The position numbers and the translations under genes are program-made. A DNA stretch of 64,000 bases, taken from the NCBI GenBank assembly GCA_950295325.1, contig OX485805.1, positions 19,083,501 to 19,147,500 on the forward strand, in the 5' to 3' direction. This stretch comes from Polytrichum commune (lineage: Eukaryota > Streptophyta > Polytrichopsida > Polytrichales > Polytrichaceae). A model generated the notes under the pieces. The model was not told the origin of the DNA. It worked only from the letters and a program-made list of their open reading frames with translations, and ran no database searches. This document shows, piece by piece, positions 20,031 to 62,231 of the stretch. Position 1 is the stretch's first letter; every line of letters begins with the position of its first letter.

Positions 20031-20394
20031 TTCTCTACCTCGGGGGGGGGGGGTAGTCATTGGTTGGAGTAGCAGTATACGTGCGAACAAATGATAGGGT
20101 ATTTTAAAAACATGGGGGCTAAAAATTATAAATGGACTTAAGAGTAATATAGGGTATAAAAAATGGCATTGGACATCTTTAAAGTACTATAGGGTATGGA
20201 ATAATAAGTAATTTGGAATTATAAGTAATGCAAGCCATTTTTCTATTAACCCAAAGTAGAAATTTACATAATGATAGCATGTGAAAAAAAGAAGAGAATT
20301 GAAAGTAATACCCCCCTATAAAATAGTGGTTGTTCGCACCTATATCCTTAACTTTTTAACACACTGCCCCCCCCCCCCCCCCCGAGTTCTCTAC
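20031..20394 (+). mobile_element. MITE-A copy 1: poly-G-ended hAT-like element, 8-bp target duplication
   Basis: The element is 20039-20386 (348 bp), flanked by perfect 8-bp repeats TTCTCTAC (20031-20038 and 20387-20394). It starts CTC plus 12 G and ends with 17 C plus GAG. Inside each G run the subterminal 37 bp end in GTGCGAACAA in inverted orientation. Two more copies (38838-39176 and 61883-62223) are close to identical in the middle. Eight-base duplications are typical of hAT transposases. No coding capacity is present, so an enzyme must come from elsewhere. Confidence 0.88.
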
Positions 20395-25719: not shown

Positions 25720-26052
25720 CATTCCAGTATGCAAGAAGAAGATAATCCCGAACACACTAATGCCAAGTGTCATTTGCGAAAAATCAACTTGTAAACCATT
25801 GTGTAACACAAGCATACACCTCATAACACAAATGAACATAATACTCATGCCAACAATGTATCAGTAAACGCACTTGAACGCCAAATATCATGAGGTGACA
25901 CTAATGATAAAGTATACATTTGGTGATGAGTGTGACTTAGCGTGTGCCTCAATATAGGGTACGTGACACTATTACGCATGTGATCCTAAATACCATAAAC
26001 GGTGTAGTAAGTGAGAGTTCTCGTGTGGCCTATTTTCCACTCATGGATATAA

Positions 26053-26446
26053 GAGCATCCTCAGTCGGTCTAGGTAAAGCTCACTGCAAACCAAAACCTA
26101 TCTTTTGACTTACCTAAAATTAGAAACTGAATTTACCATCATTAGAAGCGCACCTAAATAAACGTGAGATATTTCTCAAGAACAAAGAATTGTAAAAATT
26201 TGACGTAGGTGAAATCCCTCATTGAAAACACCACATTTTCAAAATTTAGAGGGAGTGCACCAAATCTTGCTTTAAATGGAAAGATCCTCCCACACTCCCT
26301 CCAAATTTTTGACATTTAGAGGGAGTGTGGGAGGATCTATCCATTTTTAAGCAAGATTTGGTGCACTCCCTCTAAATTTTGAGCAATTTTAAGCAAGATA
26401 GGTCTTGGTTTGCAGTGAGCTTTACCTAGACCGACTGAGGATGCTC
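26053..26446 (+). mobile_element. MITE-N: 394-bp hairpin MITE, about 52-bp TIR, TAA duplication
   Basis: The ends GAGCATCCTCAGTCGGTCTA, continuing through GGTAAAGCTCACTGCAAACC, are inverted for about 52 bp with almost no mismatch. TAA is duplicated at 26050-26052 and 26447-26449, as for PIF/Harbinger. The centre contains a second long inverted repeat (26239-26301 against 26319-26382), with arms around GAGGGAGTGCACC and GGGAGGATC. RNA from this locus would fold into a long duplex and could feed small-RNA pathways. There is no coding capacity. Confidence 0.9.
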
Positions 26447-26449
26447 TAA

Positions 26450-38750: not shown

Positions 38751-38829
38751 GATGGTAACCAAAAAATTGGGTGTTTCATCCCAATTTGGAGCCGCTCCCA
38801 GACCAGACCTTGCCCTAAATTCGCATTGG

Positions 38830-39184
38830 ATCTAAGTCGGGGGGGGGGGGGGCGCAGTGTGTTAAAAAGTTAAGGATATAGGTGCGAACAACCACTATTT
38901 TATAGGGGGGTATTACTTTCAATTTTTTTTTTCACATGCTATCATTATGTAAATTTCTACTTTGGGTTAATAGAAAAATGGCTTGCATTACTTATAATTC
39001 TAAATTACCTATTATTCCATACCCTATAGTACTTTAAAGATGTCCAGTGCCGTTTTTGATACCCTATATTACTCTTAAGTTCATTTATAATTTTTTGCCT
39101 CCATGTTTTTAAAATACCCTATCATTTGTTCGCACGTATATTGCTACTCCAACCAATGACTACCCCCCCCCCTGAGATCTAAGT
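38830..39184 (-). mobile_element. MITE-A copy 2: poly-G-ended hAT-like element, 8-bp target duplication
   Basis: The element is 38838-39176 (339 bp), in reverse orientation relative to the other two copies, flanked by perfect ATCTAAGT (38830-38837 and 39177-39184). On the plus strand it begins C plus 14 G and ends with 10 C plus TGAG. Two bases of the usual CTC terminus are missing on the left. The interior matches the other copies closely (TATCATTATGTAAATTTCTA, GGTTAATAGAAAAATGGCTT). Confidence 0.88.
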
Positions 39185-43141: not shown

Positions 43142-43676
43142 CTTCAGTGCACGGGTAGATCACTCTAAGGCATTTTTGTGCACCACGTGCGGCTGGGGGT
43201 TTATTGTTTTGGGGCTATTTACCTTCAAGGGTTGAATTTAAGCCTCCCTATAATTACTTAAATTTCAAAAATGGTCCATTTGTTTGCACCCTTCCATTAC
43301 TTATATTATCCAAGTCACTCCAATTTTTTGTACTCTATATTCCTTTTAACGACAACGCGTTCCCTTTTCATCCATTTTTGGACAGACGGAAATTCCAATT
43401 ATCATCCATCCCTGTGAGTCCTAAACCCATTTACATACCATACTAAACATACCTTCTAGGATCCTTATCTTCAGCCCCTATATTAATTTTACAAAAAAAT
43501 AATGGCCCACGTTTTATGTCCATCTAACTTACTTATAATGGGATTGTCTACATTTAATGGCCCCTTCATTATTTGGAATTCCTTTATAATTTTTATTTCA
43601 AATGATTTTAATCCTCTCTATATTATGCCGCACGTCGTTTTTAAAATGCACTAAGTGATCTACCCGTGCTTCAGTG
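43142..43676 (+). mobile_element. MITE-B copy 1: CACGGG-ended, 8-bp target duplication
   Basis: The element is 43150-43668 (519 bp), flanked by perfect CTTCAGTG (43142-43149 and 43669-43676). Inverted ends start CACGGGTAGATCACT and stay alignable to ACGTGCGGC for about 42 bp. A second copy is at 50663-51161. Eight-base duplications fit a hAT-type transposase. A frame at 43204-43446 lies inside the element and is not a gene. Confidence 0.88.
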
Positions 43677-48314: not shown

Positions 48315-48817
48315 GGCCACTTCACACATGAGCCAAGAGCCGTGACCATGAAGTTGTGAGAGCCCAAAAGAAAGTGTCCAAAGGCTGTCCCAACGCATCT
48401 CCCAAATCATGTGAGTGTGGTCACGGGCCCTCAAGTGTAGCGTGGAGTCACATGTGACTGGGCCCTCAACTAAATGCTATTTCAATGATTTTTTTTATTC
48501 ATGCGGGTTTTCACACATGATCAAGTAAAATAAATCAACGGTTGTGAGTGTTCGGAGTGCCATGGTCTCTTGGTTTTCGTGTTCGGCCTACCTTCAAGAG
48601 GTGGTTTTGGAAAATAGTCCAAGTGACCACGAGACATGATCCATTTGATGCCATGCAGAAATCCATGTGGACTTCACATCCATCTTGCATTCACATACTC
48701 CGTTGGTCCTTCAAGCGTAGTGTGGAGCAAACTTGGAGCGGCTCCGCCTTTTCCACCAATGAGAGTGCTTGAAGTGTAATGGTCTCGGGCCCTCAGTCTC
48801 ATGTGTGAAGTGGCCCT
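48315..48817 (+). mobile_element. MITE-C copy 1 (GGGCCACTTCACAC ends)
   Basis: About 503 bp with inverted ends GGCCACTTCACACATGAG. Internal phrases such as GAGCGGCTCCGCCTTTTCCA and CACTTCAAGC-type sequence match 50634-51622 in reverse. No clean target duplication was seen. It has no coding capacity. Confidence 0.7.
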
Positions 48818-50633: not shown

Positions 50634-51622
50634 AGGGCCACTTCACACACGAGACTGAGAGCCACGGGTAGATCACTCTAAGGCATTTTTGTGCACCACG
50701 TGCGGCTGGGGGTTTTTTTTGTTTTGGGGCTATTTACCTTCAAGGGCTGAATTAAAGCCTCCCTATAATTACTTAAATTTCAAAAATGGCCCATTTGTTT
50801 GCACCCTTCCATTACTTATATTGTCCAAGTCACTGCAAATTTTTGTACTATATATTCCTTTTAAGTAATTTTGGATAGACGGAAATCCCAATTATCATCC
50901 ATCCCCATGAGTCCTAAACCCATTTACATACCATACTAAACATACCTTCTAGGATCCTTATCTTCAGCCCCTATATTAATTTTACAAAAAAATAATGGCC
51001 CACATTTTATGCCCATCTAACTTACTTATAATGGGATTGTCTACATTTAATGGCCCCTTCATTATTTGGAATTCCTTTATAATTTTTATTTCAAATGATT
51101 TTAATCCTCTCTATATTATGCCGCACGTCGTTTTTAAAATGCACTAAGTGATCTACCCGTGCTGAGAGCCCGTGTTAATTGCACTTCAAGCACTCTCATT
51201 GGTGGAAAAGGCGGAGCCGGTCCAAGTTCGCTACTTCACAGTACGCTTGAGGGACCAATGGAGTATGTGAACGCAAGATGGATGTGAAGTCTACTTGGAT
51301 TCCTACATGGCATCTAAGAGATCATTTTTAATGGTCACTTGGATTATTTTCAAAAACCGTTTGGAGGTAGGCCTAATACAAAACCAAGAGACCATGGCCC
51401 ATGATGTTCTATTTTATCATGTGTGAGGACCCGCATGAATAGACATTCATTAAAATAGCATTTGGTTGAGGGCTCGGTCACATATGACTTCACACTACAC
51501 TTGACAGTTTGTGACCCACATTACATGATTATGGAGGTGTCTTGGGGCATCCTTTGGACACTTTCTTTTGGGCTCTCACAACTTCATGGTTACCGCTCTT
51601 GGCTCGTGTGTGAAGTGGCCCT
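50634..51622 (-). mobile_element. MITE-C copy 2, reverse, interrupted by MITE-B
   Basis: The ends AGGGCCACTTCACACACGAG and, read in reverse, AGGGCCACTTCACACACGAG bound a reverse copy of the 48315-48817 element. MITE-B occupies 50663-51161. Removing it with one 8-bp duplication leaves about 480 bp, close to the length of the uninterrupted copy. Confidence 0.75.
50655..51169 (+). mobile_element. MITE-B copy 2, nested in MITE-C
   Basis: The element is 50663-51161 (499 bp), flanked by perfect CTGAGAGC (50655-50662 and 51162-51169). Except for small indels it is nearly identical to 43150-43668, which suggests both moved in the same period. Confidence 0.9.
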
Positions 51623-61874: not shown

Positions 61875-62231
61875 TTCTAAACCTCAGGGGGGGTAGTCAT
61901 TGGTTGGAGTAGCAATATACGTGCGAACAAATGATAGGGTATTTTAAAAACATGGGCGCAAAAAATTATAATTGGACTTAAGAGTAATATAGGGTATAAA
62001 AAATGGCATTGGACATCTTTAAAGTACTATAGGGTATGGAATAATAGGTAATTTGGAATTATAAGTAATGCAAACCATTTTTCTATTAACCCAAAGTAGA
62101 AATTTATATAATGATAGCATGTGAAAAAAAGAAGAGAATTGAAAGTAATACCCCCCTATAAAATAGTGATTGTTTGCACCTATATGCTTAACTTTTTAAC
62201 ACACTGCCCCCCCCCCCCCCGAGTTCTAAAC
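61875..62231 (+). mobile_element. MITE-A copy 3: poly-G-ended hAT-like element, 8-bp target duplication
   Basis: The element is 61883-62223 (341 bp), flanked by perfect TTCTAAAC (61875-61882 and 62224-62231). It starts CTCA plus seven G and ends with 14 C plus GAG, same orientation as copy 1. The shorter left G run shows that run length varies between copies while the rest is conserved. Confidence 0.9.

What the first reader, a model, noticed from the sequence alone, without database searches (positions are those of the whole stretch)
20031..20394. MITE family whose termini are long poly-G/poly-C runs, three copies with perfect 8-bp target duplications
Copies at 20039-20386, 38838-39176 and 61883-62223 have different, perfect 8-bp duplications (TTCTCTAC, ATCTAAGT, TTCTAAAC). 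This proves independent transposition. The ends are CTC/A plus 7-14 G on one side and 10-17 C plus GAG on the other. A homopolymer as the outermost transposon end is unusual, because transposases normally read a defined sequence. Its length varies between copies. The conserved inverted motif GTGCGAACAA lies about 27 bp inside the run and may be the real recognition site. G runs could form quadruplexes at the two ends.
Basis: partly seen in the sequence, partly recalled or inferred. Interest (0 to 1): 0.72.

Follow-up and report, generated by a model that had tools for sequence, protein, structure and literature searches.

The report
MITE family with slipping poly-G ends
A short non-coding jumping-DNA family with about 1,300 copies in this genome has ends that contain long runs of G; the runs look like ordinary repeat stretching of a short G-rich end sequence, and a smaller sister group without the runs jumped too.

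Summary
Three ~340-bp copies with perfect, different 8-bp duplications sit exactly where stated. The genome (408 Mb) holds about 1,300 copies (1,298 motif hits, control 9). Of 90 copies examined (one row a repeat), 77 have a perfect 8-bp duplication and 9 one mismatch; shuffled flanks give 0.2 and 2.1. The outermost bases are CTC...GAG; the homopolymer lies just inside, then a core of about 313 bp with GTGCGAACAA usually 27 bp in.

The homopolymer is not required. A small subfamily (45 tip hits, control 1) has the 11-bp tip CCCGGGGAGGG; 18 copies with such tips at both ends all have 8-bp duplications. The G form probably spread as CTC+G7-8 and lengthened by slippage: end counts are G7 146, G8 205, G9 84, G12 220. 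Run length shows no detectable inheritance, resembles this genome's other long G/C runs, and differs among duplicated copies of one insertion.

By its duplication this is a hAT-like MITE. No autonomous partner was found in the 34 stretches scanned, the tip does not fit the hAT start that I recall, and the superfamily is unproven.

The parts
20031..20038 (.). target duplication TTCTCTAC, left, copy 1
20039..20386 (+). MITE copy 1 (348 bp, CTC...GAG)
20042..20053 (+). G12 run, 5' end copy 1
20081..20090 (+). subterminal motif GTGCGAACAA, 27 bp inside the run
20330..20339 (-). subterminal motif GTGCGAACAA, 27 bp inside the run
20367..20383 (+). C17 run, 3' end copy 1
20387..20394 (.). target duplication TTCTCTAC, right, copy 1
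38830..38837 (.). target duplication ATCTAAGT, left, copy 2 (shared stretch is 9 bp, 38829-38837)
38838..39176 (-). MITE copy 2 (339 bp, inverted; one tip is C instead of CTC)
38839..38852 (+). G14 run (family 3' end) copy 2
38882..38891 (+). subterminal motif GTGCGAACAA
39126..39135 (-). subterminal motif GTGCGAACAA
39163..39172 (+). C10 run followed by TGAG (family 5' end) copy 2
39177..39184 (.). target duplication ATCTAAGT, right, copy 2
61875..61882 (.). target duplication TTCTAAAC, left, copy 3
61883..62223 (+). MITE copy 3 (341 bp, CTCA...GAG)
61887..61893 (+). G7 run, 5' end copy 3
61921..61930 (+). subterminal motif GTGCGAACAA
62170..62179 (-). subterminal motif, variant GTGCAAACAA
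62207..62220 (+). C14 run, 3' end copy 3
62224..62231 (.). target duplication TTCTAAAC, right, copy 3

Best explanation
This is a high-copy non-autonomous cut-and-paste element (a MITE, about 1,300 copies) with a core of about 313 bp, short inverted tips of about 11 bp and 8-bp target duplications. It was most likely moved by a hAT-type transposase acting in trans. The tip exists as two discrete alleles. One, rare, is CCCGGGGAGGG. The other, carried by the great majority of copies, is CTC followed by a G run that was about 7-8 long when it spread (so also about 11 bp). Once inserted, the uninterrupted G run behaves as a mononucleotide microsatellite and slips, mostly to 10-19. Shown: the copies, the duplications, two tip classes, the near-constant 27-bp spacing of GTGCGAACAA, lack of detectable heritability of run length, and run change after insertion in one duplicated insertion. 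Inferred: hAT transposase, founder length 7-8, and that the motif is the transposase-binding site.
For: Duplications: 77 of 90 perfect and 9 with one mismatch; shuffled flanks give 0.2 and 2.1 (one row, L002, repeats L003). Tips of the non-homopolymer class: 45 hits genome-wide, control 1; 18 distinct copies have such tips at both ends, 15 with a perfect 8-bp duplication in the fixed register, 2 with one mismatch, 1 perfect after an extra C. Tip class is inherited: 5 changes on the core tree against 17.0 in shuffles, 0 of 500 as low, though no inner branch of that tree is strongly supported. Run length shows no detectable inheritance: Mantel rho 0.078 (p 0.078, 75 left ends) and -0.018 (p 0.65, 73 right ends). 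Run lengths are bimodal: 25 of 148 are 8 and 5 are 9; genome-wide G7 146, G8 205, G9 84, G12 220, controls 1, 0, 0, 1. Runs of 9 or more do not differ from other G/C runs (114 vs 42; Mann-Whitney p 0.55, KS p 0.37). Four loci that descend from one insertion by segmental duplication (same duplicated bases apart from one substitution) have runs 16/16, 12/11, 11/10, 11/10; three are 97.2-98.7% alike over 3 kb, the fourth (L003) is 95.0% over 2.1 kb and 90.4-92.0% over a further 0.66 kb. Elsewhere in the window a repeat family has two or three C in three copies where three other copies have 13-18 C. hAT dimerisation domains abound: 150 matches scored of 1,060 candidates.
Against: The G class is far more numerous than the CCC class (two of 90 sampled copies have CCC-type tips at both ends, two more at one end), so the G end may be the more mobile one. 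No autonomous element with these ends among 30 hAT loci and 4 further downstream stretches; most hAT candidates were not examined. Tips CTCGG/CCCGG lack the A at position 2 of the hAT consensus that I recall. The duplication sequence is only weakly patterned. G7 is also common (146), so the founder length is 7-8 rather than exactly 8, and the excess at 8 over background runs (25 of 148 against 4 of 52) is not significant (p 0.16). The left-end Mantel test is near the usual threshold. Two of the four duplicated copies have equal runs. The two tip classes have the same age, so which tip is ancestral is open. Run lengths rest on one assembly.
Confidence: 0.75

Rival explanations
1. The transposase truly recognises a variable-length homopolymer end: it binds GTGCGAACAA and cuts at CTC whatever the run length, so expanded copies go on transposing.
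For: Tip-to-motif distance is 38-47 bp in the six window ends, all with perfect duplications; both tip classes moved; the G class is by far the more numerous; Hermes, a hAT element, is bound at subterminal repeats away from the tip (PMC10368747, passages).
Against: Run length shows no detectable relatedness signal and changed after insertion in a duplicated copy set, so lengths at the moment of insertion are unknown; the mode at 7-8 suggests short runs when mobile.
Confidence: 0.15
2. The long G runs are sequencing or assembly artefacts.
For: Homopolymers are error-prone (general knowledge); even lengths are over-represented (95 of 148).
Against: Lengths range from 5 to 21 with a trough at 9, some runs are interrupted by other bases, and the genome has other long G/C runs outside the MITEs. 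Errors of one or two bases cannot be excluded.
Confidence: 0.04
3. Not hAT: a P-like or short-duplication Mutator-like MITE.
For: 8-bp duplications are not unique to hAT (recalled), tips lack the usual hAT start (recalled), and no hAT partner was found in the part searched.
Against: Duplications are 8 bp, not the 9 of plant Mutator elements (9 nt in grapevine, PMC2528002 passage), and hAT domains are plentiful in this genome. The search for the P-element family did not complete.
Confidence: 0.15

Closest known systems
hAT MITEs of plants, e.g. BniHAT-1/-2 of Brassica nigra (PMC7385995, passages read)
   Same: Short, AT-rich, high copy, 8-bp duplications, short inverted ends (25 and 12 bp there)
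   Different: Here the inverted end is a G run in most copies; partner transposase not identified
Pineapple Ac-mMITEs (PMC8449440, abstract and passages read)
   Same: Terminal GA/TC bases that the authors think grew into (GA)n/(TC)n tracts by slippage after insertion: the same idea
   Different: Dinucleotides, Mutator-like 9/10-bp duplications; authors stress targeting of (TA)n. Here a mononucleotide inside the element at both ends
Coral CMITEs (PMC2872659, passages read)
   Same: Families that share an internal region but carry different terminal repeats
   Different: TTAA duplications, piggyBac-like; no homopolymer tips in the passages seen
Hermes hAT transposon ends (PMC10368747, passages read)
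   Same: Transposase BED domains bind subterminal repeats inside the tip
   Different: Binding site AAG(T/C), a different element; the role of GTGCGAACAA here is only inferred

Membership tests
MITE | short, uniform length, no coding capacity | tested here: met
   323-350 bp between outer run ends in the 77 rows parsed at both ends; no stop-to-stop frame of 75 aa or more lies wholly inside a window copy (two frames overlap a copy's edge)
MITE | terminal inverted repeats and target duplications | tested here: met
MITE | high copy number of near-identical copies | tested here: met
   1,298 motif hits, control 9; 87 of 88 sampled places are full-length, 92.7-98.7% like copy 1
hAT superfamily | 8-bp target duplication | tested here: met
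   77 of 90 perfect, 9 with one mismatch
hAT superfamily | short inverted ends (8-23 bp in grapevine hATs, PMC2528002 passage) | tested here: met
   11 bp in the CCC class; 3 bp plus run in the G class
hAT superfamily | tip begins C/T-A..G (consensus recalled, from no call) | tested here: not met
   tips mostly begin CTC or CCC; the feature is typical rather than universal, so the element is called hAT-like, not filed as hAT
hAT superfamily | related autonomous copy with hAT transposase | tested here: inconclusive
   30 loci and 4 stretches, none; 1,060 first-look candidates exist
P element | P-type transposase in the genome | not tested
   every request for PF12017 did not complete
Mononucleotide microsatellite | length changes by slippage independent of descent | tested here: met
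   no detectable relatedness signal; lengths differ among duplicated copies of one insertion

The most novel reading that the evidence does not exclude
A cut-and-paste transposase works on ends whose tip-to-binding-site distance is elastic: it docks on GTGCGAACAA, cuts at CTC, and tolerates a G run of 7 to nearly 20, or CCCGGGGAGGG, between them. The element then carries its own hypermutable spacer at both ends, and slippage would tune or end its mobility after each insertion.
Probability: 0.15. Interest if true: 0.65.

Novelty: new variant of a known kind. Interest (0 to 1): 0.4.

Why it matters
The family is a natural experiment on transposon ends: nearly the same core moved with two different tips, one of them an unstable homopolymer. 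It shows that an odd-looking end can be a by-product of microsatellite slippage, which matters for annotating MITE boundaries and for deciding which bases a transposase must read. About a thousand insertions, most with a G run at both ends and of similar age in the sample, also give an unusual data set for measuring how G runs evolve.

Tried and rejected
Autonomous partner: 30 hAT loci of about 3.2 kb plus 4 two-kb downstream stretches were scanned for motif and tips. Only L123 matched fully, and it holds a whole MITE; a one-mismatch tip in L142, a one-mismatch G tip at the edge of L141 and weak motif matches in L130, L131 and L139 lack the rest of the end and are taken as chance. A search with PF14372 found nothing, but its own control rang nowhere, so it says nothing.

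Genes: 88 of the 97 stop-to-stop frames of 75 aa or more (10, 78) against Pfam gave only weak hits (best E 0.0019, CENP-B_N; a hAT dimer hit at E 0.034 is at chance level for 78 proteins).

Other collections: no exact match to a 22-base left-end pattern in viral contigs or to a 21-base one in prokaryote genomes. Rfam: no match in the window at gathering thresholds.

Empty sites: no unoccupied paralogue of the three insertions inside the window.

Ancestral tip: not resolved by age or by an intermediate (CTCGGGGAGGG plus YAGT occurs once, at the element of L105).

Correlations of run length with divergence or between the two ends: none detected.

Papers: full-text searches listed none that by title or abstract describes a MITE with homopolymer tips; the listed papers were mostly not opened. 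Opened, by abstract or passages only: PMC7385995, PMC10368747, PMC3942097, PMC2528002, PMC9296464, PMC8449440, PMC2872659. One search was a background search on hAT binding sites.

Rows dropped: one search found no right end in 3 of 91 and no left end in 11 of the other 88; its row for copy 1 (W1) was parsed from the wrong end. One search used 90 rows (L071 has no element; L002's row repeats L003). In one search, 4 of 90 rows fit neither class: L037 and L040 showed no duplication, L056 and L080 had off-register tips. One search kept 107 distinct copies and left out truncated ones such as L112/L113. Mantel used 75 and 73 of 84 G-class copies. The first 88 copies were picked by an exact right-end motif on one contig, so they lean to well-kept copies; all 18 CCC-class copies come from the search for their tip (two of them are also in the first sample), so 18 of 107 is not a frequency.

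Full report
What is there. The window holds three copies of one element. Copy 1 is 20039-20386, copy 2 is 38838-39176 (inverted), and copy 3 is 61883-62223. Each is flanked by a perfect and different 8-bp direct repeat. A blind scan for 8-bp repeats next to inverted tips returns these three, two copies of a second family, and nothing else; ten simulated sequences return 1 in all. The cores differ by 3.2-4.5% in substitutions. In family orientation the order is CTC or CTCA, a G run, YAGT, 23 further bases, GTGCGAACAA, and the mirror image at the other end. The two inner arms share only 10 of their first 27 bases, but the motif sits 27 bp from the run at five of the six window ends (the script stopped part-way and was completed) and at 69 of 77 left and 74 of 88 right ends parsed genome-wide.

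Whole genome. The window lies in a 407.8-Mb genome of 64 contigs. The right-end motif pattern occurs 1,298 times against 9 for its reversed control. A left-end query gives 1,452 first-look candidates, of which 40 were scored. I took the 100 listed places in order and fetched the first 88 (8 loci, 80); 87 of 88 are full-length copies, 92.7-98.7% like copy 1. With the three window copies, 90 rows (one row, L002, repeats L003) give 77 perfect 8-bp duplications, 9 with one mismatch and 4 that fit neither class. Pairing flanks of different copies gives 0.2 perfect and 2.1 one-mismatch on average.

The homopolymer is dispensable. Four of the 90 rows had a different tip, CCCGGGGAGGG or close to it: two at both ends, two at the left end only. 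A search for that tip plus YAGT found 45 ends (control 1), 30 of them in 15 pairs 310-320 bp apart. Among 107 distinct copies from both samples, 84 have G runs at both ends, 18 have CCC-type tips at both, 2 are mixed and 3 have a G run beside an altered inner edge; this is not a frequency, because the CCC copies were sought by their tip. All 18 have 8-bp duplications: 15 perfect in the fixed register, 2 with one mismatch, 1 perfect after an extra C. The CCC class is thus real and mobile, but much the rarer; the G class may be the more mobile of the two.

Tip class goes with the core. Three core positions that differ between the classes (found, so not independent evidence) read TTC in 65 and TAC in 13 of 84 G-class copies (6 others: TAT 2, GTC 2, TTT 1, TTA 1), and GAT in 11, TAT in 6 and TAC in 1 of 18 CCC-class copies; the two mixed copies read TAC and TAT. 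On a core tree the tip class needs 5 changes against 17.0 when shuffled, none of 500 as low (no inner branch of 104 is strongly supported). Both classes have the same spread around their own consensus, about 2%, so age does not say which came first. The hybrid tip CTCGGGGAGGG occurs once.

Run length behaves as a microsatellite. Parsed G-class ends have 5 to 21 G: 25 of 148 are exactly 8, 5 are 9, and a second peak lies at 12 and 14. Exact genome-wide counts are G7 146, G8 205, G9 84, G12 220. Unlike the tip class, run length shows no detectable inheritance (Mantel rho 0.078, p 0.078, and -0.018, p 0.65), and no relation to divergence or to the run at the other end was detected. Runs of 9 or more are not distinguishable from 42 other G/C runs of the window and fetched DNA (p 0.55 and 0.37). 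The excess at 8 over background is not significant on its own (25 of 148 against 4 of 52; p 0.16), so the founder length rests mainly on the trough at 9 and the match to an 11-bp tip. The clearest case is one insertion copied by segmental duplication. L003, L004, L006 and L007 share the duplicated bases ATATTGAG (one side of L003 has one substitution). L004, L006 and L007 are 97.2-98.7% alike over 3 kb; L003 matches them at 95.0% over 2.1 kb and 90.4-92.0% over another 0.66 kb. Their runs are 16/16 (L003), 12/11 (L004) and 11/10 (L006 and L007). Lengths therefore changed after insertion. The window as a whole is rich in such tracts: 21 G/C runs of 10 or more, 16 outside the MITEs, against 8 A/T runs; a first-order model expects under 0.1 for G and C together. 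In other fetched DNA the same holds at length 10 or more (14 against 5, and 15 against 10), while A/T runs of 8-9 are commoner. In an unrelated repeat, three copies have 13-18 C where three others have two or three.

Mechanism. Most likely a transposase in trans bound the inner ends and cut at the CTC tips, leaving 8-bp duplications. GTGCGAACAA is the obvious candidate binding site, by position and by analogy with Hermes, whose BED domains bind subterminal repeats (PMC10368747, passages). That step is inferred. A tip of CTC plus 7-8 G has about the length of the CCCGGGGAGGG tip; without the interrupting A the run is pure and can slip. Which allele came first, and how both ends came to change, is not known. 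The two mixed copies have the CCC-type tip on the left and the G-type tip on the right, which suggests that one end changed at a time.

Classification. MITE by each structural test made. The 8-bp duplication and the many hAT domains in the genome (150 scored of 1,060 candidates) point to hAT. The tip does not begin with C/T-A as in the hAT consensus that I recall, no partner was found in the 34 stretches scanned, and P elements could not be tested. I therefore call it hAT-like. The host was not identified; the repeat content suggests a plant (inference).

What is known. Slippage of terminal simple sequence after MITE insertion has been proposed for pineapple GA/TC tips (PMC8449440). Families that share an interior but have different tips are known in corals (PMC2872659). 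I found no description of homopolymer tips in the listings of the searches made, which do not cover Repbase or most subscription journals.

Verdict. A real, well-supported MITE family; the surprising end is best explained by ordinary slippage of a G-rich tip. It remains a useful system for asking how much of a transposon tip must be fixed.

Noticed in passing
43142-43676 and 50655-51169: A second MITE family with perfect 8-bp duplications (CTTCAGTG, CTGAGAGC) and inverted tips CACGGGTAGATCACT. The joined flanks of the second copy match an unoccupied paralogue at 48466-48817 across the junction at 79% identity.
   Followed up: partly
whole window; other fetched loci: Long G/C mononucleotide runs are more common than long A/T runs: 21 against 8 of length 10 or more in the window. 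Background runs outside the MITEs (52 of length 7 or more, window included) peak at 12-15 with few at 8-9.
   Followed up: partly
MITE ends in the fetched copies: Even run lengths are over-represented (95 of 148). No explanation; it may be a sequencing effect.
   Followed up: no
544, 22067, 58801, 15842, 17464, 54770: Diverged repeat family in which three copies carry 13-18 C at a point where the other three have two or three C.
   Followed up: partly
26052-26447: A ~396-bp stretch with 53-bp inverted ends, 98% complementary (AGAGCATCCTCAGTCGG...), probably another MITE.
   Followed up: no
G000, e.g. C7:27950642, C5:38737725, C4:5520394, C6:18872690: Several hAT-domain matches lie in open frames of exactly 1,084 aa, which looks like a young, possibly intact hAT family.
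   Followed up: no
38838-39176: Copy 2 lacks the CT of one CTC tip and its flanks share 9 bp; slippage of TCTC, or a cut one base inside both tips, would explain it.
   Followed up: partly
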